From: Pseudofabraea citricarpa
Taxonomy: Eukaryota; Ascomycota; Leotiomycetes; Helotiales; Dermateaceae
Assembly: GCA_029641185.1 (NCBI GenBank)
Contig: JAPWGK010000025.1
Coordinates: 602,756-666,755, forward strand
Length of the DNA: 64,000 bases
Direction: 5' to 3'
The notes below the pieces were generated by a model. That model was not told the origin of the DNA, searched no databases, and saw only the letters and a program-made list of their open reading frames with translations. Of the stretch, positions 2,930-58,104 are shown piece after piece; position 1 is the first letter of the stretch, and each line of letters begins with the position of its first letter. The position numbers and the translations under genes are program-made.

Positions 2930-3490
2930 ATATCTTAGATTAAAAAACCTAGTAATACTTAAGATATAAATAAATTCTAAAGTATTTATACTAATATATA
3001 ATAAGTTATATAACACGTATATACGTAAATATTATATTACTTAACTAGGACTTTTTAGCCTAAAATTAGTTATTATCTAAAAGGCTCTTAAGATAAGTAA
3101 AATATTTAGTAAGAGTAAATACTTATAATATAACCCTAATAAGTCGGAATAAGAAGAAGTTAATTATTATACGTATTACTTAATATTATTTTAATAGATT
3201 AATATATAACAATTAATCGGCGTATTTTAGAAGAAGCGAATATTATTATTAGAAGTAGACGACCGTTTATTTAATATTATTACTAGAAAGAATAATAATT
3301 ATATTAAGTCTCTTAAGAGGGCTACTAAGACTAATAATATTCTTATAATTATTATAATAAATTCTCTAAAAGGATTATTAGTATTATCTAGTAAATCTTT
3401 TTAGTAAATATTAGATAAGCTAAATAAGACTAATTAAGTAAAGAATTTAGCCTTAAGTTTAATTAGATTATTCTTAGGTTTATAATACGT
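2930..3490 (+). pseudogene. Possible coding relic of unknown function
   Basis: On the + strand a frame of about 180 codons reads with only TAA/TAG interruptions and gives a plausible soluble composition: blocks of Lys/Glu, Asp-Asp and Ser-Lys rather than the Ile/Tyr/Asn monotony of noncoding RIP sequence. I recognise no family. It lies upstream of the helicase relic on the same strand, separated by a minisatellite, so it could be an N-terminal part of that gene or a different transposon gene. Confidence 0.25.
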
Positions 3491-3584
3491 TTAAGGTAAA
3501 AGCTACTTAGGATAAATACTAGGAATATTATTCCTAGGATATAATATATTACTCTTAAAAGCGTAAATATCTAGATAGATAATA

Positions 3585-3912
3585 TCTATAAAGCTAGGTT
3601 TATTTATAAAGCTAGGTTTATTAATAAAGCTAACGTTTTTATCTATAAAGCTAGCTTTTTTATTTATAAAGCTAGCTTTTTTATTTATAAAGCTAGCTTT
3701 TTTATTTATAAAGCTAGCTTCTTTATTTATAAAGCTAATATTTTTATTAATAAAGCTAGCTTTTTTATTTATAAAGCTAGCTTCTTTATTTATAAAGCTA
3801 ATATCTTTATCTATAAAGCTAAGTTTATTAATAAAGCTAACGTCTTTATTAATAAAGCTAACCTTATTATTAATAAAGCTAACTTTTTTATTAATAGAGC
3901 TAGGTTTATTAA
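3585..3912. repeat. 21-bp minisatellite with palindromic core
   Basis: About 15 tandem units of a 21-bp motif of the form T6ATTTATAAAGCTAGC. The core AAAGCTAGCTTT, present in the best-preserved units, is a perfect 12-bp palindrome. Flanking units degrade to AAGCTAAC, AAGCTAAT and GAGCTAGG variants, mostly by transitions. It is noncoding in all frames. Confidence 0.85.
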
Positions 3913-7849: not shown

Positions 7850-11900
<4,051 letters not shown>

Positions 11901-17941: not shown

Positions 17942-18123
17942 TATAAGGATAATTATAAGTAGAATATTATAGTATTATAATATAATTTATCTCTAAGAAA
18001 AAAAAAGGAATTTATCCTTAAAATATATATATAAGCTAGGCGCGACCCGATTACTAGGTAATATAATAATAATAATATATATACTAGTTAACTAATTAGT
18101 TAGGTACTAGAACTACTATTATA
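17942..18123 (-). repeat. LTR of Gypsy element D (5' LTR, - orientation)
   Basis: The inverted partner of 15332-15513, also 182 bp, reading on the - strand from 18123 (TATAATAGTAGTTCTAG) to 17942 (ATCCTTATA). Its outer edge abuts sequence homologous to the interior of element C, so D was inserted into, or recombined with, an older C-family copy. Confidence 0.8.
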
Positions 18124-19130
18124 CTAAGTATTAGTAATTCTTATTAGAAAAAGATTAATAAAAAGCTAAATAAAAGAAAAGATTTCTTAGTAAAAATATC
18201 TAAAAGAATATTTCTAGTAATAAATATTAGAATCCTTATTATTATAATAAAAATTATTAGAAGAATTACCTAAGATACTTTTTAAATAATTAAGATAAAA
18301 ATACTTATAAGCTTCTTTTTTTTAATAATAAGTAAGAATATTATAAGTAAAATTTATTTTAATACTAGCTTTTTAGATCTTAGGAATAAGAATCTTAATA
18401 AAATTAAGAGTCTTCTTATAATACTCGTATTACTTATATTTTATTTACTTATAAGTAAGCTACTTATTATAAGCTTCTTATATATAATAAATAATCTTAA
18501 TAATATAAGTATATTTTTACTTAGTCTTCTTTTTATAAATATATTTCTTTTTTTTATAAATATACTTTTTTTTTATAATAATAATACGATTATAAAACTT
18601 ACTTAATAAGTAAAAGTAAAAGATTAAATAAAAGTATTTAATTTATCTTTTTTATAAATATAATTATTTATAGCTTAATTAGGATTTCCTTATATAATAT
18701 AAATAATAATCGTATTAAAATAAATAAGAATACTAAGATTAAGAATATTCTTACTTAAGATACTAAAAATAAAAAAAAAAGATTAAAGTTTTTTTAACTT
18801 ATTTAATCTTCTTAGTAAAAGAAAGATTCTTAATAAAAAGAAACTTCTTATTAAAATACGTAACTAAAATATTAGAATAATTATAAGAAAACTCGAATAT
18901 ATTAATATTTTACTAAAGATTATTAATCTTATTATTAATAAAATTATTATTAGTAGAAATATCCTTAAAATATTAAAATAATTAGATTATAATTATATAA
19001 TAATAATAAAATATAATATTAAATTTACTTTTATAAAAGTATAAATAATTTCTTAATAAATAAAAAGAATAATACGCGTATAAATTATATTTATATTATA
19101 AGTAACCTTAGTAAAAGTCTTAGGAGTTAT
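18124..19130 (-). pseudogene. Antisense ORF of C family, old copy 1
   Basis: Homologous on the - strand to the antisense frame of element C. The presumed start codon (now ATA) is at 19128-19130, followed by codons equivalent to the C copy (AP-K-T pattern). It is heavily eroded by RIP and not open. It shows that the antisense gene was already part of the family in an older insertion. Confidence 0.5.
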
Positions 19131-19463
19131 TATAATTAAGATTTTTTATAATTAAATTAAAAGATTAAAAAAAAAAAAAAAAAAAAATTAAGAAAATAAT
19201 CTTAAGTTAAAATATATATAAAAGAATTATTATAAAAAGAAAAAAAAGAAAGAAATTAGTAAAAAGTATAAGGATTTATAAGTAAGGTTTTCTAGTAAGT
19301 CGGAAAATTAATAATATAATAAGCTAAGCTAGCCTAATTAGATAATAATATATATAAGATTATAATAAGTAATACGAGATATTTTTAGTAATATAAATAA
19401 TATACGATTATAACTAATAAAAAGCGTATACTCTTAAGATTAATTAGAATTAACTAAAAGATA
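18124..19463 (+). mobile_element. Old Copia C-family remnant, internal 3' region
   Basis: Colinear with about 41835-43182 of element C through the whole segment, for example the blocks GATTTCTTAGTA and AATATTTCTAGTAATAA. It is much more RIP-damaged than element C. It ends in a C-family LTR at 19464. It holds the pol-distal, antisense-ORF-bearing part of the element only; the rest of the copy is missing at the junction with the element D LTR. Confidence 0.8.
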
Positions 19464-19667
19464 TATTATAACCTAAATTATATCTTAGTTATTATATAAG
19501 TTATATTACTTATATAATCTCTTAGTATTAATTAGCTAATATAAAATTATATTCTCCCTAAGTTAATCTTTTATTCTTTAGATAATTTATAATAAATAAT
19601 TATATAATTATTAATTATTATTTATATAATATTAATTCTAAGCTTTACTTTACTTTTATTTATAATA
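19464..19667 (+). repeat. Copia C-family LTR
   Basis: 204 bp, the same length as both LTRs of element C, starting TATTATAACC (C: TATCGTAACC) and ending TTTATAATA (C: TCTATAACA). Differences from C are nearly all RIP transitions. It is shared between the internal segment on its left and the deleted internal segment on its right. Confidence 0.85.
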
Positions 19668-20221
19668 ATAATATAAGTATAAAGACTCGATTAATAAGTA
19701 AAAGTAAAAGATTAAACTAAAATATTTAAATCTTTCTTTTTATAAATATAATTATTTATAACTTAATTAGGATCTTTTTATATAATATAAATAATAATTA
19801 TATTAAAAGAAATAAGAATACTAAGATTAAGAATATTTTTATTTAAAATACTAGAAATAAAAGAAAAAATTAAAGTTTTCTTAACTCGCTTAACTTTCTT
19901 TATAAAAGAAAGATTCTTAATAAAAAGAAACTTTTTATTAGAATACGTATATAAGTAAAATATTAGAACGATTATAAGATAGCTCGAATATAAGAATATC
20001 TTACTAAAAATTATTAACTTTATTATTAACAAAATTCTTATTAATAAAAATATTCTTAAAATATTAGAATAATTAGATTATAATTATATAATAATAAAAG
20101 AATATAATATTAAACTTATTTTTATAAGAATATAAGTAGCTTTTTAATAAATAAAAAGAATAATATATATATAAATAATATTTATATTATAAGTAATCTT
20201 AATAAAAATCTTAGGGGTTAT
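19668..20221 (-). pseudogene. Antisense ORF of C family, old copy 2
   Basis: The homologue of the antisense frame of element C, with presumed start (now ATA) at 20219-20221. Part of it is still open on the - strand over 19778-20032 from a TTG codon. That stretch contains IKKVKRVKKTLIFSFISSIL, aligned with KRAKRVKKTLIFSLVSSIL in element C. The open stretch is a fragment of the old gene and not a gene in itself; TTG is an unlikely fungal start. The copy is truncated at 19668. Confidence 0.55.
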
Positions 20222-20556
20222 TATAATTAAAAAAATTTATAATTAAATTAAAAGATTAAAAAAAAGAAAAATAAAAATAAGATAAAAAGATAATCTTAAG
20301 TTAAAATATAAATAAGAGAGTTATTATAAAAAGAAAAGAAAGAAAGAAATTTATAAAAAGTATAAGAATTTATAAGCGAGACTTTCTAGTAAGTTAAAAG
20401 ATTAATAATCTAATAAACTAAGTTAACCTAATTAGATAATAATATATATAGAATTATAATAAATAATACGAGATATTTTTAATAATATAAATAATATATA
20501 ATTATAACTAATAAAAGCGTATATTCTTAAGATTAATTAAAACTAACTAGGGGATA
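19668..20556 (+). mobile_element. Copia C-family internal segment, internally deleted
   Basis: Starts directly after the LTR with sequence matching element C from about 42303 (GTATAAAGACTCG) and runs to the next LTR. Primer site, gag and pol are absent, so LTR-internal-LTR here is a deletion derivative about 1.3 kb long. It also repeats the right part of 18124-19463, giving a tandem structure. Confidence 0.8.
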
Positions 20557-20760
20557 TATTATAATTTAAATTATATCTTAGTTATTATATAAATTATATT
20601 ACTCGCGTAATCTCTTAGTACTAATTAGTTAATATAAAATTATATTCTTCTTAAGTTAATCTTTTACTTTTTAGATAATTTATAATAAATAATTATATAA
20701 TTATTATTTATTATTTATATAATATTAATTTTAAGCTTTATTTTATTTCTATTTATAATA
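20557..20760 (+). repeat. Copia C-family LTR
   Basis: 204 bp, starting TATTATAAT and ending TTTATAATA. It is the right-hand LTR of the deletion derivative, preceded by CTAGGGGA, which corresponds to the polypurine tract of element C. No clear 5-bp duplication was found around the tandem structure. Confidence 0.85.
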
Positions 20761-21183
20761 AATATTATATAACTTAAAAGACTTTTTTATTTTATAATTT
20801 TATAAATTCTTAGTTATTTTAAAAAAGCTAAATTTAATTATATATAAAAAGAACTTATATATTTATATAAGCCTAAGATCTAAAATCTTAGTTATATTTT
20901 ATATTAATAATATATAAATATTATATTATAAAAATATATAATAAAACTAAAACTTAAGAGATTATTTATAAACTTAATAAAATATATAAGCTTATAAACC
21001 TTAAGAATATAAAATAATTCCTAAGAATATATATTATTAGAAATTAAACTTAAAAAAAAATATAATTAATTTAATATATATATATTAAAAAGATTATTAT
21101 TAGATTTAATTTAATAAATAAAAAATACTTAAGTATTTTATTATTAATAATAAAATTTATAAAAAATATAAGATAAACTTTTA
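20761..21183. other. No recognisable gene
   Basis: About 420 bp of very AT-rich sequence between the C-family LTR and the LTR-like repeat; nothing identifiable on either strand. Confidence 0.5.
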
Positions 21184-21384: not shown

Positions 21385-22494
21385 TATCTTATAATTTATT
21401 ATACTTAATATATATATTATTTTCTAGAAATATAAAATTAATATATTATTTTTAAATAAATAAATAATATAAGCTAGATAATTATATTATATATAATTAT
21501 TTATTAATCGAATTATTAGATTAGGTTTATAAATTAAAGATTTTCTTATATTATTTTTAGTTCTTTTAATTTAGCTAATACTAAGAATAACCTAATTATT
21601 ATTTTATAAATTAAAAATCTTATTTATAAAATCCTTATTTTATAACTTTTTTTTCTTTCTCTCTTATAATCTTAACCTTAATCTTAATTATAATATTATT
21701 AAGCTTAAATATTTCTTTTATTTTTTTTATTTTTTTTCTTATTATTTACTTTTTTTAATAAGTAAATTAAAAATATCTCGTATAACTTATAAAACGAAAG
21801 TAAAAAACTTATTAAAAATATATAAAATAAAAGAAACTTTTATAAGATTTATTTCTTTTTTTTTTCTTTTTTTTAATATATAAATAATCTTTTATATTTT
21901 ATATTAATTACTTATTATTTTATAAGTTATAAATATTTATAATTCTTCTTAAGCTAGAGATATATCTATTAATAAGCTTATATAATTTATTATAATATTT
22001 TCTATTATTAATATTAAACTAGCTAATATAATTTTTATTCCTTATATAATTTATTCTTTTATTTTCTTTTTTCTTATTTAACTTATTTCTAATAAGTAAT
22101 TTTATTTTAATATAATATCCTAAAAATTTTAATTAACTTAAGATAATTTTTATTAGTTTACTTATAATATAATTAGTAACTTTTATCTTAAGTATATACT
22201 TAATATATATAAGAAATTCTAATACGATTTCTTAGTTCTTAAGAAAAAATCTAAGTATTTTATTAATAAAACTAATAAGTTTAATTATAAAAAGCTTTTT
22301 ATTCTAAAAAAAAAAAAAATTTCTTATAAGTATTTTTATTTATTATTTATATTATTACTAATTATTATTTAGTTATTTTATATAATAAATATAATTATAT
22401 AAACTAGCTTATATTTACTTATACTTATAAGAATAATAATCTTAAGTTTCTTAAGAATCTAGATAATATTTTTTATTTATTTAAATAATTTATC
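21385..22494. other. No recognisable gene
   Basis: Extremely AT-rich, with long T and A runs at about 21640-21760 and 21850-21875. The - strand reads as Lys/Ile-rich text in several frames, but no motif is nameable. Probably decayed transposon. Confidence 0.45.
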
Positions 22495-22775
<281 letters not shown>

Positions 22776-23961: not shown

Positions 23962-24969
23962 ATAGAAAGTATAATATCTGATTATAAAGAGGATCGCGAC
24001 CTTCTTAATATAATTAATCGGGATAATTTTAATAACTTTATTCTAGAAACGCGAGATCGTATATTCGATACGCGTAATAGAAAAGTAGTACGAGTTTATT
24101 CTTATTACTCTTAGCTACTTATCGTTTATTATATTACCGCTATTTGCTATTTAGCTAAATTTAACCGTCCTTTTTAGTAATATCGGCTCTAAGGATAATC
24201 GTACGAAGTTATTATTCTTATTATGCCTAGAAGATATAATTTACTTAGTATATACGTCGATTAAATTTATCCTTAACGTATTCTTAGTCTCTTAGTTTAG
24301 TCTTTAGAAAAAGTAGATTATTCGTAGATAAACTAGTAATATATTATATATATTCCTAGTAGTCGCCGTAAGCTTTATTTCTTATCTTATTATACGTACG
24401 AACTTAAGATTAATAGTAAAATATATAAAAAATATCTAGTAAGCTAATCTAATTAACGCTACGAGTATTATAAGTTTATTTCCTAAATAACCCTTTTATA
24501 TTTTATAATTAATTAACTTTAGGTAATAGTTTCTTTTTTATTAAGCTTACGAGATATAATAAATTTATATGATATTTCTCGTTAAGATCTTTCTAGTAAA
24601 TATCGTCCTAGTACTCGTAAATACTCCGGTCTTACTCCCCCTACTGTTATTAAATAAATAAAAGCTATAGTCGCCTAATAGTAATTACGTTAGGAGGCTT
24701 ATTATATTATCCTTACTCGGTTAGCTACTAAAAAAAATAATTCTTCTTATAGCTCGGTTCGTACGCGCTCTAGTATTAAGAATTCTATTAACTTTATAAA
24801 TACTTAGACTAGTTTAGAGAATAATAATAATATTAATCGTCGATCTAGTAATTCTGGTAATAATAGTAATAATAATAATCCTAGTTACGTTTCGGGTAAC
24901 TCTCGTAGTAATACCGGTAATAATAATAGAAATAATAATAAGACTAATACTAGTATTATTTCGCCTTAG
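23962..24969 (+). pseudogene. Antisense accessory ORF of element A (about 335 codons), unknown function
   Basis: A + strand frame runs from a presumed start (ATA, former ATG) at 23962 to TAG at 24967-24969, with internal stops only of the TAA/TAG RIP type and no frameshift. It begins MESIISDYKEDRDLL (start codon restored) and contains RRYNLLSIYVD, SSRRKLYF, RPSTRKYSGLTPPT and QQLRQEAYYIILTRLATKK. It ends in an Asn/Ser/Arg-rich tail (about 24830-24950, RRSSNSGNNSNNNN). The tail and the charged blocks look protein-like, whereas the opposite strand reads as Ile-rich text. It is antisense to the element, starts near the 3' LTR and converges on the pol stop at 25137. I recognise no domain and it has no visible membrane segment. 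Host-derived capsid-like or nucleic-acid-binding roles are guesses. Confidence 0.5.
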
Positions 24970-34700: not shown

Positions 34701-35656
34701 AAAGTATATTAGAAAGTTCTTTTATTTTATCTTTCTTTAAGATCTTAATAATCTTAATTACTTTTTTATAAATATATAAATCTTTTTTCTTATTTATATA
34801 AAGAGAAATAAGACTTAGCGTTTAAATTTTTAGTAATTCTTTAGAGTCTCTTATATTAAATATAACTTTATTTTTTATTATATCTAGTAATATATTTTAT
34901 AGAGATATTTAGGTTTTCCTAAGTATTATATTATATCTTCTAAGTTTTATAATCTAGAAGAAACTTAGTAGTTCTTATTTCTAATTAATTTTAAAGTTAA
35001 TTAGGATTTTATATTTAATAAAAGATATTTTTTTATTATTAAATCTAATAAAAAGTTTTAGATATTATAATTTTATTAATTTAATTTATTTAATTTAAGA
35101 TATTTATTATATAAAAGATTCGTTTATAAAATTTCTACTAAGATATCTAGTATTAATTAGTATAAAAGAGAGTATTTTTATTTTTCCTATCTTATATTAT
35201 AATATAAAAAAGATATTATTCTTTAGTTCTAGAGATAATCTAGTAATATTAATTTTTAGGGGAATTTTTTCTTTTATATCTTAAGATATAACTTCTCTTA
35301 AGATTTCTTGTTTTCTAGCTTAGTAATCTTTTTTAAGGATTTTACTATAATAATCTTAGTAACTTTTTTATATAAATAATCTTTAGCTTTATATCTTTAC
35401 TTATAATAATAAAAGTAAGCTTCTTCTTTTAATAATTTCTGTTTTTCTTTCTTAGAAAATCTTAGTTTAATTATCTTAGGAGTAAAATTAATTAATTTTT
35501 CTTTATTAGTAGGTTTACCTAAAATAAAAGATCTTTTAGAGATATTTATTATAAATTAAGCTAATTTCTTTTAGATCTTTTTATTTTCTTAAACCTTTTA
35601 ATTTACTCTCTTATATCTTATAATTATACTTTTATAATTAGGTTTATCTAGGAATA
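31735..35656 (-). pseudogene. Gag (C-terminus) and Pol of Gypsy chromovirus B
   Basis: Read leftwards on the - strand. A gag zinc knuckle lies at 35374-35417: Y-x2-Y-x4-Y-x4-Y, which is C-x2-C-x4-H-x4-C after RIP. RT starts near 34135 with FYINYRKLN and continues through FPFRLTNKPLTF (PFGLTNAPATF) near 33880 and LSYINNIYIY (AYLDDILIY) near 33800, then KFLGLII and FIRFINFYKRFI near 33.55 kb. The integrase C-terminal GPY/F module lies at about 32170-31935 (YKIKKKIKLSSYKIKL, then LKIYLIFYSNLL). A chromodomain at about 31905-31735 reads FYKVK and YLVENFKN. Almost every Gln/Trp codon is now a stop. The gag frame is interrupted at 35656 by element C. Confidence 0.82.
35652..35656. repeat. Target-site duplication of element C, left
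   Basis: GAATA before the left LTR, repeated at 43387-43391 after the right LTR. It is part of the gag of element B. Confidence 0.85.
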
Positions 35657-35860
35657 TATCGTAACCTAAATTATACCTCGGCTATCATATAAGCCGTGCC
35701 GCCCGCGTAATCCCTTAGCACCGATTAGCTGGTATAAAATCACGTTCTCCCTAAGTTAATCTCTTGCTCTTTAGATAATCCGTAGCAGATAATTATATAA
35801 TTATTAATTATTATTTATATAATATTAATTCTAAGCTTTACTTTATTTCTGTTTATAATA
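35657..35860 (+). repeat. 5' LTR of element C
   Basis: 204 bp, starting TATCGTAACCTAAATTATAC and ending GTTTATAATA. It matches 43183-43386 with transition-type differences such as CTATAACA versus TTATAATA at the end. It should hold the promoter for gag-pol; the stretch CGGCTATCATATAAGCCG forms a short imperfect palindrome. Confidence 0.92.
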
Positions 35861-35875
35861 GTTATAAGCCTAATA
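35861..35875 (+). promoter_or_regulatory. Primer-binding site of element C (initiator-tRNA half type)
   Basis: Directly after the LTR lies GTTATAAGCCTAATA. Undoing RIP at TpG/CpA gives GTTATGAGCC(C), complementary to the anticodon stem-loop of initiator methionine tRNA (GGGCUCAUAAC). Drosophila copia and several yeast and fungal Copia elements prime from such an internal cut of initiator tRNA rather than its 3' end. The match is short and partly reconstructed. Confidence 0.6.
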
Positions 35876-35995
35876 TAACTTATAAAGCTTCCTTTGTTAC
35901 GCTAACGGATCTAGAGAATCCTTAGAATATTATATTCCCTTTCTTCTAATTATTACGATTAATAAAACCTCGTTTTTATTATTATTTTTAATATA

Positions 35996-38900: not shown

Positions 38901-41374
38901 GTAATAAAAACTTAGTTAATAAGTAAAATAAAATACTAGTAAAGCCGATAGATATAAATCTAGTTACTCTAAGGGGTAAAAAGATATCCGAAACCCTAGA
39001 TTTAAATTCTAAGATTATAGAAACGCTAGGATCGTCTTCTAAAGAGTTATTTATACCGATCTAGATAATAAAGTAATAGAAAGATACTCTAAAGCTAGAG
39101 ACTAGCCTTTTATCTCCGAGAAATACTCCTTCTACTAAAAGTATACTAGTAGTAATAAGCGGAGATTCGTACGTTTAAGGTAAGAACGAGGGTATAATTA
39201 ATCGTAGTACTAATAATAATATAAATATAAGATTAGCGTAGGAAATATACCCCTAGGTGATTATCTAGTAATTATTATTAGTAGACTAAGTAATAGGTTA
39301 AAGATAAGGGGAAATAACTCGACCGAAGCTATTATCTAATATATAAAGCTCGTCGCGAGTAATAGGACGCTTAATAAAGCCTAGCGACCCTGCTAAGCCT
39401 ACTATAAAGAGACCTAGGAAGAAGTACGAAAGGAAAATCCACGACCCTGCTATAAGATCGAGTAAGCGGCTCTAAGATAAAAATAAGGGTAGCGATAATA
39501 TCTCTAGTAATAAAGTTAAAAAAGGAGTTTTTGCCGCGTTCGTAAGAAACACGAATACTAGTAAAAGACTCGAAGAGATAATAAATAAAATAGGATATTA
39601 AGGTATTAATATACTCGAAAACTTTTTTAATATATTTTAGTCTAATTTATTAGAAGCTAGGGAAGATATTTATTATCGAATAATATATATTATAATCGTA
39701 ATAGTAATATAAACTAAAGTCTCGAGAGCTAGCAAGTATACTAAGTAAGTTTACTCGAGTATAACTCCGTATATTAGAATAAGTAAATTCCTATTAATAC
39801 TAAAGAAGTAAAATAATCTTAAAAATTATCCTCTTAGAGTATAATTCCGAGTAAAAGCGAAGCTCGAGCTTAGAAACCTCGAAGTAAAAGACTATTAGAG
39901 GATAATCCAAATATTAGAAGCCGAGAGTACCCTAATCCTATTAAAATAAGTATTTAGCTATAAGCTAGACTTATTAGGATTCTTTATTAGATATCAAGTA
40001 AAAATCGTCGTCTAAGGTAATCTCTAAGATAATAAGACGATTATTTTAATATACGTAGCTATATTAGTAGCTAGATCCTTTCGTGTCGTAATAGCTTTAG
40101 CCGCTCGATTCGATCTTAAGGTTAAGTAATTTAATATCGTAAATATATTTATTAATATAAAGAGAGATACGAGTAATATATTTATAGCCTACCGTCTCCT
40201 AGAAGGATTTAAAATCCCTAGCAAAAGCGTAAAGATCGATCGAGTATTATATAGCTTAAGAGATTCTCTAGCGCTTTAGTTCGTATATTTTTCTATTACC
40301 TTAAAAAGCTTAGGCCTTATCTCGTGTAAAAAGGATCCGTGTATTTTCTTCGATAAGTAGCAAAAGATTTTTGTCGTATTTTATATAAACGATATCTAAG
40401 TCTTATTCTATAAAGACGATAAAAAATACGCTTAGGAGATTATTAAAGATCTAAACTTAGCGTATAACTTATATACGCTTAGTGAAATTTAATAGTTCCT
40501 AGGTATTAGAGTAATTAAAAACAAAAAGCGTAAGAAGATCTAGATAATATACGATACTTATATTAAGAAGATCGTACGAAAATTTAAACTCGTAGATAAA
40601 AAGTACCCGAGTATACCTCTACTAATAATAAAATTCGTAAAATATATAAGAAAGGTTTTATTAGCTTAGATTAAAGAATACTAAGAGAAAATAAGATTTA
40701 TATTATATACTACTATTATCGTACGCGTAAATATTACTTTTACTACTTTATAGCTTTTTAATTTTCTCTAAAACCCGAGCCCTAAGTATTTAATTACGGT
40801 TAATTAGATAATTAAATACTTATTTGGTATACGCTTTCTCGCGATCGAGTATAACTATAAGCTAGGTAAGATCTAATTACTAATCGCGTCGGACGCGTCT
40901 TTCGCTAACGATACTAAAACGCGACGTTCTTCGTATAATTATATTATTTCCTTATTTGGTAAGCTTATTATATAACGAGCTACTTATTAAACGATAGTAT
41001 CGACCTTAATTACTAAAGCCGAAATAAAGGGTATAAAGCTTATAGCTAAGGAAATTATAGCTTTTTAAAGGTTCTTTCGTAATCTTAAACTTAATATTAG
41101 TAATACCTAGATAATTTTATATAATAACTAATAAACGATTAAATTAATCGTAGAAGAGAATATAAGAATAATAACTAAGTTATATTATATAAATATCTAA
41201 AATATATAGTTACGTTAAGAGTATAATAAAGGTACTTTTAATATAACTTATATCTTAACTAAGGATATATTAGCTAATAATTTAACTAAGAATCTCCTAT
41301 AATATAAGTTTAAAGCTTTTCGCGTTTTACTAAACCTCTAAGATATAAGAGGAAAAATCGAGAAGCTCGATTAA
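35996..41374 (+). pseudogene. Gag-Pol polyprotein of Copia element C
   Basis: One frame of 1,792 codons without net frameshift, from ATA (former ATG) at 35996 to TAA at 41372-41374, broken only by TAA/TAG. The gag part starts MTPNNKEIGVEANIYLKKRA (start restored) with FRDIWYLLDL. The protease-like block lies near 37300 (LLDNYSLLNLVNSKDM; family: LLDSG...HLVN). Integrase spans about 37.85-38.77 kb, ending in RRYRVFK, GYIRYLVRYI and VIITRNVTFN, typical of the Copia integrase tail. RT begins around 39.9 kb with RYQVKIVV (RYKARLVV), and the catalytic loop is at 40376-40396, FYINDI (FYVDDI). RNase H reaches to about 41.3 kb. It lies inside element C, convergent with the antisense frame 190 bp downstream. 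The single-frame layout is typical for fungal Copia. Confidence 0.85.
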
Positions 41375-41563
41375 GAAATATTAATAGAATTTATACTTAT
41401 TTTAGATTATTTTATTTATGTTTTTATATATTTATATTATAATATTTCATTTATATAAAGGCGCTTATAATAAGCTTATTTTATTAATATAAGGCGAGAA
41501 GCGTTCCTAAGCGGTACCTCTAGTTACTAAGCTCCTAGCTTATCTCTAAAGTCTTTTCTAGCT

Positions 41564-42848
41564 TTAGTTAACTACTAAGTTAACGATCTTACTAAGAAGC
41601 TCCTTTAACTTAGTATACTTCTTTAATATAAGAGGACTAATAATAGCAGAAAATACCTTAAGCTTAGGCTTAATATCGACTAGCTCTAGAGTAACACGAA
41701 TAATATAGCGAAGTCGTGCTAATTATTATAAGTAATATTAGTATATAGCTAAGCGCGAGGGAGTATAATACTTATATAAGTAACCGTCTTCTTAGCGTAA
41801 TCCTAAGCCTTTAGCTTACTAGGATCCTAAGTATCGGCGATTTTTATAAGAAAAAAATCGGCAAAAGGCTAAATAAAAGAAGGGATTTCTTAGTAGAAAT
41901 ATCTAGAAGAATATTTCTAGTAATAAGTACTAGAACCCTTATTATTATAGTAAATATTATTAGAAGAATTACCTAAGGCGCTCTTTAAATAACTAAGATA
42001 GGAACGCTTATAAGCTTCTCCTTTCTGGTAGCGAGTAAAAATACTACGAGTAAGGTTTACTTTAGTATTAGTTTTCTAGACCTTAGGAGTAAGGACCTTA
42101 AAAATATTAGGAGTCTTCTTACGAGTTTTCTTACGACGCTTTTATTACTTATAAGCTATCTGCTTACGAGCGAGCTTTTTATCGCGAGCCTCTTATATAT
42201 AGCGGGTAATCTTAGTAGTACGAGCGCGTTTCTACTTAGCCTCCTTCTTATAAGTATATTCCTTCTTTTCCTTAGCGCGCTTCTTCTTAGTAGTAGTAAT
42301 AGCGCGAGTATAAAGACTCGACTAATAAGTAAAAGTAAAAGACTAAATAGGAGCGTTTAAATCTTTTTTATCGTGAACGTAATTATCTATAGCCTAATTA
42401 AGATCGCCTCGCGTAATATAAATAATAGATATACTAAAGGAAACAGGAGTACTAAGATCAGGAATATTCTTGCCTAAGATACTAGATACTAAAGAAAAGA
42501 TTAAAGTCTTCTTAACTCGCTTAGCTCTCTTAGTAGGAGAAAGATTCTCGACGGTAGGGAAATCGGGATCAGAAAACGCGAGGGAAATACTAGAAGGATA
42601 ACGTCTAAACTCGAGCTTAGGATTATTCTACTAAAAATTATCGACCTTATTATTAACGAAATCCTTGTTAATAGGGATATCCTCGAAGCGCTAGAGTAAT
42701 TAGATTATAATTATCTAGTAATAAAAGAATATAATATTAAATTTACTTTTATAAAGGCGCGAGTAACTTCGCGACGTTAGGACTAAATAGCGCGCGTATA
42801 AGTTATATTCGTACTACGGGTAACCTTAGCGGGGGTCTTAGGGGCTAT
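41564..42848 (-). pseudogene. Antisense accessory gene of element C, unknown function
   Basis: On the - strand a start (ATA, former ATG in ATAATGG context) at 42846-42848 opens exon 1 (34 codons, MAPKTPAKVTRST with start restored). It ends at 42747 before GTAAAT. A 56-nt intron (42691-42746) ends CTAATTACTCTAG (branch CTAAT, acceptor CAG mutated to TAG). Exon 2 resumes in the correct phase at 42690 (RFEDIPINKDFV) and stays open, except RIP stops, to about 41.86 kb. It is Lys/Arg-rich: KRAKRVKKTLIFSLVSSIL, TTTKKKRAKEKKEYTYKKEA, QQKRRKKTRKKTP. A C-terminal stretch in another frame (KPKLKVFSAIISP...LLSKIVNLVVN, stop at 41564) implies a second intron or an indel. The basic blocks suggest a nuclear or nucleic-acid-binding protein. 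I recognise no family. Two older copies at 18.1-20.2 kb share it. Confidence 0.55.
42691..42746 (-). other. Putative intron in the antisense gene of element C
   Basis: 56 nt, starting GTAAAT and ending TAG on the - strand, with CTAAT 9-13 nt before the acceptor. Length and signals fit fungal introns once the acceptor CAG is assumed RIP-mutated. Removing it joins two protein-like stretches in phase 0. Confidence 0.45.
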
Positions 42849-43170
42849 TATAATTAAAATCTTTTGCGATTAAATTAAAAGATCGAAAAGAAGAAAAGTA
42901 AAAGCAAAGTAAGAAGATAATCTTAAGTTAAAGCGTATATAAGAGAGTTATTATAAAAAAGAAAGGAAGAAAAGAAATAATAGAAAGCGTAAGAATTTAT
43001 AGGCGAGGCTCTCTAGCAGGTCGGAAGATTAATAATCTAGCGGGCCGAGCTAGCCCGATTAGGTAATAGCGTACGCGGGATCGCGATAAATGGTACGGGA
43101 CGTTTCGGTAGCGTAAGTAGCGTATAATTACGGCTAATAGGAGCGCGCGCTCTTAAGATTAGTTAGAATT

Positions 43171-43182
43171 AACTAGGGGGTA
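43171..43182 (+). promoter_or_regulatory. Polypurine tract of element C
   Basis: CTAGGGGGTA directly precedes the 3' LTR at 43183. The same position is CTAGGGGATA or CTAAAAGATA in the older C-family copies before 20557 and 19464. It is short for a polypurine tract but correctly placed. Confidence 0.6.
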
Positions 43183-43386
43183 TATCGTAACCCAAATTAT
43201 ACCTCGGCTATTATATAAGCTATGCTACCCGCGTAATCCCTTAGTACCGATTAGCTGGTATAAAACTACGTTCTCCCTAAGTTAATCTCCTGCTCTTTAG
43301 ATAATCCGTAGCAGATAATTATATAATTATTAATTATTATCTGTATAATATTAATTCTAAGCTCTGCTTTATTTCTGTCTATAACA
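43183..43386 (+). repeat. 3' LTR of element C
   Basis: 204 bp, from TATCGTAACCCAAATTATAC to TGTCTATAACA, where the original CA end survives. It is followed by GAATA. Confidence 0.92.
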
Positions 43387-43391
43387 GAATA
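43387..43391. repeat. Target-site duplication of element C, right
   Basis: GAATA, identical to 35652-35656. Confidence 0.85.
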
Positions 43392-44690
43392 TAACTCTAA
43401 AATCCTAAAGTTCTTTATTTACTTTTATATTAAGTTTATTTAGTCTAGATCGTTTATTTTATCTAAGTTTTCTTATAAGTTTATTAAATTTAATAAAAAA
43501 AGTTAAAAAAAGATTATTATTCTAATAAAATTTCTTAACTTCTAAGAAGATAATTTCTCTTTTATCTAGGTTATTATAAGTAAGTTTAAGTTTATATAAG
43601 ATCTTATCTATAATATTAAATTTATTTAAAGAGAATTAATATAACCTAGTTTAGATATAATTAATTATATCTCTAGATATTTTACTTCTTATATAACTAA
43701 TACGATTAATTTCGCTTATAAAATAATCTTAGTTAATCTTAAGTTTATTCTTAATTATATACTTCTAATCCTTAAATTTCTTATAAGTTCCTAAAAAAAT
43801 AATAAGTAAATCTAGGAGTTTATTACTTTTACGCGATCGGTTTTTATTTTCTTATATATTCTTATAAGCGTTTAAGATTATACTCTAATTTCTTATTAGC
43901 CGAATAATTTATTTCTTATTCTTAAGTATTTCCTAGATATATTAAATATTATAAGTATTTATACTTATTATTTTATCTAATTAGTTATTTCTATTAATTA
44001 ATCTAACGTTCTCTTATTTTAATTTTATAATTTATTACTCTCTTATTATTAATTACTTAATTAAGTTACTTATAATATTATAGACTTCTTATACGAGCTA
44101 ATTTCTTTTTTATCTAATAAACTTATATTTTTTATAGAATTTATTAAGTAATTAAAAGAAGCGTTCGCGTTTTTTTTATCTTATTAATATAATTTCTTTT
44201 ATACTTTTAACTTTCTAGAATTTCTTTACGTTTTTATTTTCCTTTATTATAAATATTAAAGGTTAAAAACGCGTATATCTTAAGATAATACGTTTAATTT
44301 TTCTAGGTTATTTAATTATTCTTATAATTACTTTTATAAGTTTTTTTTTAGTCTTAATTAATATAAAAGTAAATATCTTATTATTTAATTTCTCTTTCTT
44401 ATTATCTTTCTTAATTATAAGTTAAAGGTTTATTTATATTTTTAAGTATTAAAAGTTTCGGTTCTAAGGTTTATATTCTAATATCTTAGATATTATTTTT
44501 ATTTATTCTTTTATTATAACTAGTAAGTATCTAATACGATAATATATTATTATATATATTCTAGGTTCTAGGGGTTCTAGTTTATTATATATTATTACGA
44601 CTTTTAGTAAATCTAGGGATCTAGGTTTTTTATATAATAAAATATAAAAGTTCTATAAGTTCGTACGTATTTTTATTATTCTTATTAGGA
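43392..44690 (-). pseudogene. Gag (N-terminal and capsid part) of Gypsy chromovirus B
   Basis: The - strand between the 5' LTR (44719) and the insertion of element C reads as a Lys/Glu/Leu-rich Gag. The region 43.8-43.4 kb is best preserved: FLGTYKKFKDQKY, YIRSKISRDIINYIQT, YKLKLTYNN, and LTFFIKFNKL just before the break. It continues at 35656 on the far side of C (RVIFYSQ crosses the duplicated GAATA), leading to the zinc knuckle at 35.4 kb. Similarity to retrotransposon Gag is by composition, position and the knuckle rather than a single diagnostic motif. Confidence 0.65.
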
Positions 44691-47160: not shown

Positions 47161-49140
47161 AATACAAGATAAGAACAATAAAAACTTATTATATAAAGAG
47201 TAGAAATACTAAATTAGCTTCCTTTATATATTATACTTAGATACTAATAAGATTTTAGTAAAAAACTAGTATTATTATATTATATTTAATTCTAAAAGAA
47301 ACTAGATAATATCGTTTATCTTATAAAGCTATTAAAAATAATATTTATTTATATACTAGGATATAAACTATTTTATAATAACCTAAAATATATTACTTAT
47401 AATATTAATACTTAGTATATATAATAATATATACTAAGTATTCTTCTAAGTATATTATATTAGATTATTTTAAAACTTTAAGATTAACTTAAATTAAAGT
47501 ATTACTTAGTAGTCGGCTAATATAATCGATTAATATACTCGTTTAGCCTATAATTTATTATATCTAAATAATAGATACTTTATTATTTTAACTACCTTTA
47601 TTATTTTATCTTTTATAATACTTATAATAATAGTTTCTACGTTTTTATTTTAAATATCTTTATATTAAGTAAATATATTTAATATAACTCCTAAAGCTAA
47701 AATAATAAAAGAGAAAGAAACTTAAGATACTAAAGGCTTAATAAGCTTAAAGATATCTAGGATTATTAATACGCTAGGTATATATTAAAGCTTTATATTA
47801 TTATATATTAACTAATATTCTAATTAGTTACGATTTTTTTAGTTATAATATTACTAACTATAGCTTTATTAATTATAATTTTACTAACTATAATATTATA
47901 AGCTATAATATTCCTAATATAAAATGTTATTATAATAATAATAAAGTTTACCTTAAAATTAAACTTAAAATAATCTCTTATTAGTATTCTAATAATTATA
48001 CTTAATATTATAAATATTCTAAATATAAAAGTTTTTCTTAACTTTAAATTATATATTATAAATCTTTTTACTAATTAAAAAGCCGTAATTATATAAAGAT
48101 AAGACCTACTAGGTTCTAGAAGCTAGCGATTATATTAAATCGACTCGGATATAATAGTAATTATTAGGATAATAGAAGTAATTATTATTAGGGTTATTAT
48201 ATTTAGTAGCCTAAAGGAACTAAGTAGAAAATTTCGTAACTAGAATTTATAATTATAAGTAATTATAAATTATCTTATAATAATCTTATATATCCTTACT
48301 TAGGTATAATATTTAGTATTATTTAGTTATTTACTTATATTTTAAGCTAAAGAAAAAGATATTAACTCTTAATTTATTAGAAAACGAAAAATAAATTATA
48401 AGAATCTAGAATTTCCTTTTATTTATAATAATAAGAAGCTTCTTAATATAAACTTTCTAGGTTCGTTTAAGTACGTATAAGATATTAAAACTAGTAATAT
48501 TATTAGTATAATATTCAAGTTAATAATATAAAACGTAAAAAAAAGACCTAGTATTTTATTTAATCTTAAAAGAATATAAGATATTATTATAAGCTTATAT
48601 ACTAGAGAGAAGATATTAATTCTAAGAAAGTATTAAAATAATATAATTATAATAAATAATAAGAATAATAAAAGTCTAAGTAAGATAAGAAAAATAAATT
48701 AATTTATAATAAAACTATTAATTAATATCTTAAATATAATAATATTATTTTAATTACTTATTATAAAATATAATAATAATAAATTAGACTTCTTTTAATA
48801 TATCTTAAATTAATATATATTAATAAATAATAATATAAAATAAATTATATTATTAAAAATAATATATATACGAAGTAAGATAATCTTATTAAAATAATAA
48901 TAAATCATATATAACCTAGAATATAAGATAATATACCCTTAACTTAGATAAAAAAGATAGAAAGATAAAATATATATTTATACGTAATAAGTATAAATTA
49001 TAATATTATTAATATAAGTAAGAAAGATATAAAAATAAAGTTATTAATATTATATAAGAATAAATCTATAAACTCTTAAATAATATAAGCTAAAGCGATT
49101 AACTAAAAAGATAAGTTTAAAAGTTTAGATAAAATAGCTA
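47161..49140. other. No recognisable gene
   Basis: About 2 kb without an identifiable domain. A short internal repeat with TATAATATTACTAACTATA-like units lies around 47835-47925. Confidence 0.45.
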
Positions 49141-55749: not shown

Positions 55750-58104
55750 CTTTTTCTTTTATTTCTTCTAAAAATCTTTTTCTATTATAAAGGTATTACT
55801 TATTATAAAAACTTCGTCCTCTAAAGAATTATAATTCGTTTATTAGCGTTTAATACTTTGCTCTAGTAAAATAATCGAGTTATAAATAAATAAACTATAA
55901 AGGCGATTAAGCTAGTTATAATAATATATACGTTAAGAAGGCTAGTATTATATTTTTACTATCTAATATAATACGAATAATATAATAATATATATAAATA
56001 TAATAGTTAGCAAAGCCTTATAAATACTTATAATTATAATTAAGATTTATATATCAAATATATCTTCGTCTTTAGGAGATATATCTAAATTATACTCTAA
56101 TACCTAAGAGTAAAATATATAATTTCGTTTCTTTGTTTCTTATATACTAGCGAACTATAAAAAAGTATAAACTAAAATTTAAAATACTTCCGAAAATACT
56201 AGTAAAATATTATTACTTTAATATAATAATATTTATATAATAGATAACTTATATAATATAAGGATAATATTATAGCTAGATTACTTTAGATAAATTCTTA
56301 TAGCTTTATATACTTACTACTAGTAATCTAGATTATTCCTAGAATATAAAATCCTTAGGATTCTAATATTATTACTTATATTTTATACTTATTACTCTTA
56401 AATTTATATACGAGTCTTAAGCAAGTATATTAGCTACCTCTAGAAATACGTTATATAAGAGTACTAGTAATATATATATATTTATAATAAATATCTTTAT
56501 ATTTATTTACGTTTATATCTTCTTTCTAGGGAAAATAAACTATTATATTACCTAACAAGTATCCTTAGCTTTAAGTAATTACTTTAGTACGCGACTAAAA
56601 CTTATAATAAGTATAATTTACTAGTTACGTATAAAACGCTTTATATACTTTATACGAATAAAAGCGCGATTTATAATATTATACTAAAAGAACTTAGGAT
56701 TCTCTTTTTATTAGATTATAATTATAAAAAATATAATAATTAGCTTATAAGCTATTATTAGCCTCTCGCGTACGCTTAAGTCTTACCTATTAATAAGCGA
56801 CTTATACGTAGCGCTTATTAACTATAACTATAATACGCGAGACTTCTAAGTATAACTTATTATCTTTTTCTAGAGAGTTACGTTTAGATATCTAGTATAA
56901 CCTCTAGGAATATTCTTAAACGAAATTAAATTTAAGTAATATAAAAGAAACTATAGAATTATTATTATTAGCTTTTAGTTATTATAATACTCGTCTTATA
57001 CTAGGAGCCCGAATATAATATATAGTCTAGTTATAATTTATTTATTATTCTTAATAAACTAACTAATAATCTTAGTCTTTTAATATTAGATATACTTAGA
57101 AGTAATAATAAATAATAAAGCTTAAAACGATTAAGAGTATAATTATTATTATTATTCTAATATTAAACCAAATAATATTAGTTTATAGGTATTATAAATA
57201 ACTTATAGCTATTATAATAAACGAATATCTTAAACTAGAGTTATTTATTAGTAGTATTTATAAACTTATAGAAATCGTTAACTAGAGTCTTAATAGCTTT
57301 AGCTAAAACTATAACTAATACTAGACCTTAAGATAATATCTTAAGCTAATTATTAATTATTCGACCGGCTAAGCTTTTATTAATATAAATATACTAGATC
57401 GGCTATTTAGTATAAGAGGAATAACAAGTACCTAGTAATTATAAATTATTAAAATAATTATATACTCGAATATTAGAAGTATTCTTATATATATTATTAG
57501 ATATTAGAGTAATAATTTATAAATATATAAAGGCTCTAATTACCTCAAGTATCTTATAAATACGAGGTTAATCTACTAAAAACCTACCCTAGGAGTTATT
57601 ATACTTAATAAAAACTTAGGTAAAAACCTAAACTATAATATATACTTAATATAATTATATATTAAGTTTTAAGCCTTAGAATATAATAATATCTTAGAGA
57701 CTTATATTTCGCTCGTCTAGTATAAGAAATAATTAATATATTAATCTTTATAATATCTCGTTTATATACTTAAGCTATAAGTTCTTTATAATTTCGTCTA
57801 AACTAATAGAATATTATTAGTATATTATTTATATATAAAAGTATTACTTAGGCTTTATCTATTAATTAAATCGCTCCTTATAAGTTAAATCGTTTATTTT
57901 ACTTTTACTTTAGTTATTATTATTACTATTATCTTAGAAGTTATTATTATCTTATTATAAGTTAGAATCTTTACCTAAGCCGGGTATTTTAGCTAGATTA
58001 TTATTATTATATTTATTATTATTCTTATTATTACTTAATTTATTATTAAACTTATTACTAGGATTTTTTTCCTTTCTAGAACGAGGATCTTAAATTTTCT
58101 TCTT
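55750..58104 (-). mobile_element. Unidentified element, copy 1 of a ~2.4-kb direct repeat
   Basis: Colinear with about 61540-64000 over its whole length. Shared blocks include GCCTTATAAATACTTATA (56012 and 61797), TCGCGTACGCTTA (56767 and 62613), AATAAGCGA, and the (ATTATT)n tract ending TTACTAGGATTTTTTTC near 58065 and 63960. Net indels are about 110 bp. On the - strand the right end reads PPNTCKYK, then KKKIQDPRSRKEKNP, then an Asn-rich run, which looks like a real former protein, perhaps with a zinc-binding C-x2-C. The middle gives no motif. DNA transposon and non-LTR element are both possible. Confidence 0.5.

What the first reader, a model, noticed from the sequence alone, without database searches (positions are those of the whole stretch)
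41564..42848. Copia element C carries a spliced-looking antisense gene between pol and the 3' LTR
A - strand frame convergent with gag-pol has a plausible start context, an in-phase 56-nt intron with fungal signals, a long second exon broken only by RIP-type stops, and a strongly basic composition. Older copies of the same family at 18.1-20.2 kb keep it; the block KKVKRVKKTLIF is still open there. Antisense accessory genes are described in some plant LTR elements, but I know of no described fungal Copia family with this layout. It could encode a regulator, a nucleic-acid-binding factor or a captured host protein.
Basis: partly seen in the sequence, partly recalled or inferred. Interest (0 to 1): 0.75.

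Follow-up and report, generated by a model that had tools for sequence, protein, structure and literature searches.

The report
Antisense gene in fungal Copia elements
A family of dead, mutation-scarred fungal retrotransposons carries an extra two-exon gene written backwards between its last replication gene and its 3' end, and a related family carries a version of it too, so it looks like an old accessory gene of unknown function rather than a chance reading frame.

Summary
Window 41564-42848 lies between pol and the 3' LTR of a RIP-mutated Copia element and reads as an antisense two-exon gene. RIP keeps purine/pyrimidine class, so I tested purine/pyrimidine codon phase. Exon 2 is strongly phased (chi2 56, p 7e-13; 0 of 4000 surrogates reach it); the 197 nt and 332 nt on either side are not; exon 1 shows its own shifted phase only weakly (p 0.02). 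Codon classes fit the minus strand, not the in-register plus frame. Intron-like signals, and ATA at the start, recur in 14 copies. A second Copia family, 67-70% identical in pol, has a matching antisense block: 14 of 18 hits outside family C sit 402-486 nt behind such a pol, all 14 antisense. The antisense frame gives the best cross-family match.

Against: no homologue found; no third-position excess between families; weak selection signal among copies; mixed indels; basic composition partly a RIP effect. Antisense genes at this place are known from plant Gypsy elements and fungal Boty. A fungal Copia case, with intron, in two families, appears to be a new variant.

The parts
42747..42848 (-). 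Antisense exon 1, 34 codons, begins with ATA where the start codon is expected
   Evidence: Translation; purine by class .68/.59/.35, p 0.02; ATA in 14 of 14 copies covering it
42691..42746 (-). Predicted intron of 56 nt, phase 0; donor GTAAAT here, branch-like CTAAT, acceptor TAG
   Evidence: Of 14 copies, 10 have a GTAAGT or GTAAAT donor and 4 ATAAGT; 11 have a TAG acceptor and 3 TAA
41760..42690 (-). Antisense exon 2, main part in one frame; basic middle at 42103-42402
   Evidence: Purine/pyrimidine phase chi2 56, p 7e-13; translation
41564..41759 (-). C-terminal tail of exon 2; out of frame in the window copy, in frame in the five copies read whole, to a TAA at 41564-41566
   Evidence: the TAA aligns with a TAA in 12 family-D copies
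41853..42011 (-). Block shared with Copia family D (exon 2 residues ~223-282)
   Evidence: hhalign E 1e-7, 43% identity over 60 columns; best of 36 frame pairs in the control; 0 stops of 52 codons in 12 D copies
42849..43180 (-). Leader between the antisense gene and the 3' LTR, pyrimidine-rich on the antisense strand (72% in 42849-42990); candidate promoter region
   Evidence: no codon phase (p 0.97). Promoter role is inference
39600..41360 (+). pol RT/RNase H part of the Copia element (control frame)
   Evidence: RVT_2 match at 39935-40621; codon phase p 1.6e-7. RNase H is named from position only
35635..35876 (+). 5' LTR (aligned extent)
43160..43403 (+). 3' LTR (aligned extent; the core repeat begins at 43181)
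18114..19130 (-). Older copy of the antisense region, followed by an LTR match at 19432-19683
19629..20519 (-). Second older copy, with the open block KKVKRVKKTLIF, followed by an LTR match at 20525-20779

Best explanation
The region is the remains of a protein-coding accessory gene that belongs to this Copia lineage. It lies antisense to gag-pol, between pol and the 3' LTR, and consisted of a 34-codon exon, a 56-nt intron and an exon of about 375 codons. It was most likely transcribed towards pol from a promoter in the pyrimidine-rich leader or the 3' LTR. Because it is antisense, the intron would not be spliced out of the sense genomic RNA and so would survive retrotransposition. The gene was present before the two related families (C and D) separated. 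Shown: coding phase of exon 2, its strand, presence in 9 of 10 C copies with the long pol segment (the tenth in part), and a homologous block in family D. Inferred: promoter, splicing, and the role. My best guess for the role is a fast-evolving, basic, nucleic-acid-associated factor that regulates the element's expression or integration, by analogy with plant antisense genes such as Grande gene23.
For: Coding phase that RIP cannot create or erase: purine by class .40/.69/.47 over 931 nt, chi2 56; four surrogate sets of 1000 each had a maximum of 17.1. Continuous in 300-nt windows from 41700 to 42749 (chi2 13-23), falling to 1.3 and 0.7 in the windows at 41550 and 42750.

Strand: the minus frame has RR/RY/YR/YY codon classes .34/.26/.18/.22, close to pol .31/.31/.16/.22; the in-register plus frame has YR only .06, p 2e-7 against an assumed 16%.

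Transversions among 11 copies: 39 columns, 19 in antisense third positions against 10 and 10 (my count of the list), and the highest BLOSUM of six frames.

Intron signals in 14 copies.

Family D: 14 of 18 non-C hits lie 402-486 nt behind a D-type pol, all 14 antisense; a local search finds the block in 10 of 12 D loci. D has its own phase signal in that frame in the three loci tested. The antisense frame is the best of 36 frame pairs, E 1.1e-8 against 1.2e-6 for the best shadow pair (5 of 11 C copies, 8 of 12 D loci).

Stops in the antisense frame of five copies (20-22 of 375) are as frequent as in pol (32-40 of 586 in three copies).
Against: C-D transversions in the shared block are not third-position enriched (9.9/15.1/9.3 at positions 1/2/3 over 51 codons), whereas all 64 pol windows of that size are.

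Among copies, synonymous excess is not significant (p 0.22; one plus frame has a slightly higher fraction.166 against .152) and BLOSUM is p 0.065.

Indels are mixed: two in-frame events (3 nt in L015/L016, 12 nt in L018), but also length changes that are not multiples of three (near 41759, near 41839 in L018, near 42265 in L016, and in exon 1 of L015/L016).

In the shared block amino-acid identity is .47 in the antisense frame and also .47 in two other frames, and in C two other frames have fewer stops (2.0 against 3.0). Shadow frames also gave local hits down to E 1e-6.

No ATG in any of 14 copies. Exon 1 phase is only p 0.02. 14 of 27 D-type pol matches have no antisense hit.

No homologue among 5.8 billion proteins, Pfam or PDB, although pol finds relatives among those proteins. 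The D frame changes by one base between the shared block and its end, and the C-terminal tails do not match by profile (E 0.049). No RNA evidence.
Confidence: 0.75

Rival explanations
1. A passenger: a host gene (or part of one) was transduced in antisense by an ancestor of the element and is carried along without a function for the element.
For: Third positions are much more pyrimidine-rich than in pol (Y3 .69 against .51), which could be host-gene codon usage (not compared with host genes here). It has a predicted intron. Transversion columns are about four times as dense as in pol (39 of 938 against 22 of 2061). Selection signals are weak or absent.
Against: A homologous block is kept at the same place and orientation in a second family 67-70% identical in pol. 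The D copies still show a stop-free block of 52 codons. The search of this genome with the antisense protein gave no convincing host paralogue (best candidate C12:2306321, E 0.012).
Confidence: 0.17
2. A sense-strand third gene (env-like) lies in the in-register plus frame, and the antisense frame is its shadow.
For: Fewer stops in the plus frame (mean 8.1 against 17.6 of 299). RNY phase is symmetric between in-register strands.
Against: Codon-class composition is unlike a protein (YR .06). The intron signals fit the minus strand. Transversions are not enriched at the plus third position (10 of 39). In D the plus frames carry 5.8-8.2 stops in the block.
Confidence: 0.04
3. No gene at all: a conserved non-coding region with accidental reading frames, shaped by RIP.
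For: All frames of the C-D alignment score above background because the DNA itself is similar. The block lacks third-position excess. Strong codon-like phase also occurs elsewhere in the window.
Against: Codon phase with sharp borders, 0 of 4000 surrogates, on a character RIP cannot alter. Four other Copia loci sampled show no comparable phase immediately behind pol (chi2 up to 10.9), though stronger windows occur farther out in two of them (L039, L042).
Confidence: 0.04

Closest known systems
brtn of Boty-like elements (Botrytis cinerea, Sclerotinia sclerotiorum)
   Same: Fungal LTR element with an extra antisense gene between pol and the 3' LTR (PMC7264820 section 5, read; PMC8365987 passages)
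   Different: Boty is a Gypsy element (brtn belongs to BcGypsy1 in PMC8365987; gag-pol with a chromodomain in PMC4227169, passages). This one is Copia (RVT_2) with a predicted intron. PMC8365987 adds that brtn is missing from the latest B05.10 annotation. Sequence relation to brtn not tested: no brtn sequence was on hand; the original paper (Virology 2011) was seen only as a citation.
Antisense aORFs of plant Gypsy elements (Grande gene23, RIRE2, Retand TRP28)
   Same: Same place and orientation, kept in most copies, unknown function; Grande's protein is nuclear and its gene has its own antisense promoter (PMC7264820, PMC11963269: passages)
   Different: Gypsy, plants; no TRP28 (PF04195) or other Pfam match here
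Fungal Copia elements such as VdLTRE1 of Verticillium
   Same: Copia with RVT_2 and ~0.2 kb LTRs (PMC3441728, passages)
   Different: VdLTRE1 is given as 5.9 kb with a single fused gag-pol ORF, and the passages seen name no further gene; the element here spans about 7.8 kb

Membership tests
Ty1/Copia LTR retrotransposon | Copia-type reverse transcriptase (RVT_2, PF07727) | tested here: met
   Window copy: E 2.0e-11, 48.1 bits; copy L009: E 5.6e-12, 46.2 bits; cut-off 31.6
Ty1/Copia LTR retrotransposon | Two LTRs flanking the coding region | tested here: met
Ty1/Copia LTR retrotransposon | Integrase upstream of RT | not tested
   The family scan of the middle part failed and was not repeated
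Antisense accessory gene of LTR elements (aORF-3R) | Coding region between pol and 3' LTR, antisense to gag-pol | tested here: met
   (coding phase and codon classes; no RNA)
Antisense accessory gene of LTR elements (aORF-3R) | Present in most copies of the family | tested here: met
   Of 10 C copies with the long pol segment, 9 carry the region whole or nearly so and L019 in part; in all, 11 full or nearly full copies and 6 partial ones
Antisense accessory gene of LTR elements (aORF-3R) | Antisense transcript | not testable with these tools
   No RNA data
Antisense accessory gene of LTR elements (aORF-3R) | Conserved as a protein about as well as the other element proteins | tested here: inconclusive
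   Transversions about four times as dense as in pol; selection tests weak or negative
Retand-type (TRP28) antisense gene | TRP28 domain PF04195 | tested here: not met
   No Pfam match up to E 1; the query is RIP-damaged
Boty / brtn | Host element is Ty3/Gypsy | tested here: not met
   RVT_2 found; element is Copia
Boty / brtn | Protein homologous to BRTN | not testable with these tools
   No brtn sequence available; the protein searches found no homologue of any name

The most novel reading that the evidence does not exclude
An old, vertically inherited, intron-bearing antisense gene defines a lineage of fungal Copia elements. Its orientation protects the intron and gives it a transcript independent of gag-pol. 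Its product evolves several times faster than pol because it acts against the host, for example against a genome defence such as RIP or RNA silencing.
Probability: 0.2. Interest if true: 0.75.

Novelty: new variant of a known kind. Interest (0 to 1): 0.5.

Why it matters
In the papers seen, antisense accessory genes of LTR elements are known mainly from plant Gypsy elements and have no established function. One in a fungal Copia lineage, with an intron and in two families, would suggest that the layout arose repeatedly or is older than thought, and would put it in organisms with easy genetics. The purine/pyrimidine phase test also offers a way to look for genes in RIP-destroyed DNA without reconstructing them.

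Tried and rejected
Stop counts per frame: rejected as evidence, because an in-register plus frame has fewer stops.

Third-position transversions between families C and D: a strong positive control in pol (9 C copies, 3 D loci), negative in the shared block. Two-fold codons may limit power there; I did not test that.

Synonymous/BLOSUM permutation among copies: weak. In pol a shadow frame scored better than the true one, so this test discriminates poorly.

Indels as a sign of a frame under selection: rejected, because in-frame and out-of-frame changes both occur.

C-terminal tail homology by profile: not significant. Only the DNA alignment and the shared TAA remain.

Other Copia families in the genome: four loci fetched; no comparable phase immediately behind pol. 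Strong-phase windows farther out in L039 (4651-5100) and L042 (5551-6000) were not followed.

Protein, Pfam, PDB and plasmid searches with the antisense protein: no homologue (three of three protein searches used, one of them for pol). A viral-contig scan with pol gave no confirmed relative. Intact Copia copies: all 26 RVT_2 matches listed contain stops (the list is a lower bound). Structure prediction was not attempted.

Full report
What was asked.

The element. The window is part of a 44-Mb, 43-contig assembly. Its CpA and TpG counts are 5% of expectation, as expected after RIP. LTRs align at 35635-35876 and 43160-43403. RVT_2 is found on the + strand. The query region has 17 matches in the genome at 73-100% identity: 11 cover it fully or nearly so and 6 in part. 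A pol segment has 42 matches: 10 long ones at 84-100%, three short ones (about 430 nt) at 83-88%, 27 at 67-70%, one further piece at 65% and one of 57 nt. I call the first group family C and the 27 family D; 12 loci of the D type were compared and share the region behind pol.

Stops do not decide. Over 41760-42660 in 11 copies the antisense frame has on average 17.6 stops per 299 codons, and 14 codon columns are stops in all copies. An in-register plus frame has 8.1. In pol the real frame has 34 stops of 586.

A test that RIP cannot spoil. RIP changes C to T and G to A, so purine/pyrimidine class is preserved. In 41760-42690 the purine fraction by position class is .40/.69/.47, chi2 56, p 7e-13. 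None of 4000 Markov surrogates reached it (maximum 17.1). Exon 1 shows the phase expected from its own frame, weakly (p 0.02). The stretches 41367-41563 and 42849-43180 show none (p 0.88 and 0.97). Pol gives p 1.6e-7 (all). The signal is continuous in 300-nt windows from 41700 to 42749. Strong phase also occurs elsewhere in the window (for example 22.2-22.7 kb, which looks like a simple repeat from its values), so the test on its own is not proof. The tail 41564-41759 was only looked at, not tested.

Strand. RNY-type phase is symmetric between in-register strands, so I compared codon classes. The minus frame has RR/RY/YR/YY .34/.26/.18/.22 and pol .31/.31/.16/.22. The plus frame has YR .06, that is, almost no Tyr, His, Gln, Cys, Trp or CGN-Arg. 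Against 16% (my own round figure for proteins, not from a call) the probability is 2e-7.

Splicing. Exon 1 is 42747-42848, the intron 42691-42746, and exon 2 starts at 42690. Of 15 aligned rows, 14 cover the junction (L019 does not). Ten of the 14 have a donor GTAAGT or GTAAAT and four ATAAGT; 11 have a TAG acceptor and three TAA. The codon in the start position is ATA in all 14 (all).

End of the gene. Nine of 11 full copies differ by 1 nt in length from the window copy and L009 near 41759. In five of these nine (L010, L011, L012, L013, L017), the ones read whole, exon 2 is 375 codons in one frame up to a TAA at the position of 41564-41566. L018 does not stay in frame. Indels are mixed: 3 nt (L015/L016) and 12 nt (L018) keep the frame; changes near 41759, near 41839 (L018), near 42265 (L016) and in exon 1 (L015/L016) do not.

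Selection among copies. Transversions, which RIP does not make, fall in 22 of 2061 columns in pol (10 copies, one of them partial; 16 in third positions) and in 39 of 938 in exon 2 (11 copies). By my count of the list, 19 of the 39 are in antisense third positions and 10 in each other class; 14 of the 39 crowd into 42524-42625. A permutation test gives only weak support (synonymous p 0.22, BLOSUM p 0.065). The two copy sets share eight copies plus the window; L015 and L016 are nearly identical and not independent.

A second family. A search of the genome with the antisense protein (E up to 10) gave 35 hits: 17 are family C and 18 are not. Of the 18, 13 lie 402-486 nt behind a D-type pol listed, and one more behind a D-type pol seen (L019). 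All 14 are antisense to that pol. The other four (C12:2306321, C1:1926339, C42:1530700, C4:751072) have no listed pol neighbour. A local search finds the block in 10 of 12 D loci, not in L034 and L037. In 12 D copies the shared block has 0 stops in 52 antisense codons, while the other frames have 3.6-11.5; amino-acid identity to C (.47) is not higher than in two other frames, but the BLOSUM score per residue is (2.26 against at most 1.85). D shows strong purine phase in that frame (chi2 22-24 at L033 701-1100). A profile comparison gives E 1e-7, 43% identity over 60 columns. As a control I compared all 36 frame pairs with 5 of 11 C copies and 8 of 12 D loci: every shadow pair also scores because the DNA is similar, and the antisense pair is the best (1.1e-8 against 1.2e-6); a non-homologous C segment gives nothing below 0.019.

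Evidence against. C-D transversions in the block are 9.9, 15.1 and 9.3 at antisense positions 1, 2 and 3, while pol gives .112.065 and .290 per site, with all 64 windows above 1.2-fold. The D frame shifts by one base between the block and its end: 9 of 12 copies have the same length there, a tenth has the same remainder, two differ. The C-terminal tails do not match by profile. Basic composition is mostly what RIP leaves: pol residues give pI 10.1 too.

Relatives and literature. The pol control finds 15 proteins at 23-45% identity, two with fungal names, so the empty antisense result is not for lack of all fungi in the database. The query is, however, RIP-damaged and exact five-letter words are needed. 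Antisense genes between pol and the 3' LTR are described for plant Gypsy elements and for fungal Boty (section 5 of PMC7264820, read; passages of PMC7264820, PMC11963269, PMC8365987, PMC4227169 and PMC5987419). I found no described fungal Copia case in nine searches of the library, which lacks most subscription papers; of the papers listed I opened seven.

Mechanism. What is shown is a decayed coding region, its strand, and its presence in one family and in part in another. What is inferred is transcription from the pyrimidine-rich leader or the LTR, splicing, and a role as a basic, nucleic-acid-associated regulator. The antisense orientation would explain how an intron survives in a retroelement.

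Noticed in passing
window 18114-20779: Two old 3' ends of family C in a row, each with the antisense region followed by its own LTR match (19432-19683 and 20525-20779), without most of pol.
   Followed up: partly
L016 and L009 (C7:1204000-1220300): Two C elements head to tail on contig C7: the gag match of one begins one base behind the LTR of the other, without the roughly 650 nt that lie between LTR and that gag position in the window copy.
   Followed up: no
L015 (C11, near the contig end) and L016 (C7): These two copies differ by 0-1% although both carry heavy RIP, so the stretch was probably duplicated or copied after RIP.
   Followed up: no
window 42411 and 42519 (antisense codons): CGA in some copies and TAA in others: besides CpA, RIP here seems to hit CpG as well.
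   Followed up: no
window 22201-22701: Extreme three-base purine periodicity (R .85/.14/.80), probably a trinucleotide-like simple repeat.
   Followed up: no
window 3401-3651, 7851-8251, 10301-10501, 24451-24751, 47751-47851, 57801-58001: Starts of other 450-nt windows with strong purine/pyrimidine codon phase; candidates for decayed coding regions of other elements.
   Followed up: no
L033 ~312-600 (family D): The antisense frame of family D changes by one base near an A/T run between the shared block and the end, in most copies; an old frameshift or an intron.
   Followed up: partly
L039 4651-5100 and L042 5551-6000: Strong purine codon phase (chi2 31-47) several kb behind Copia RT domains of other families.
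   Followed up: no
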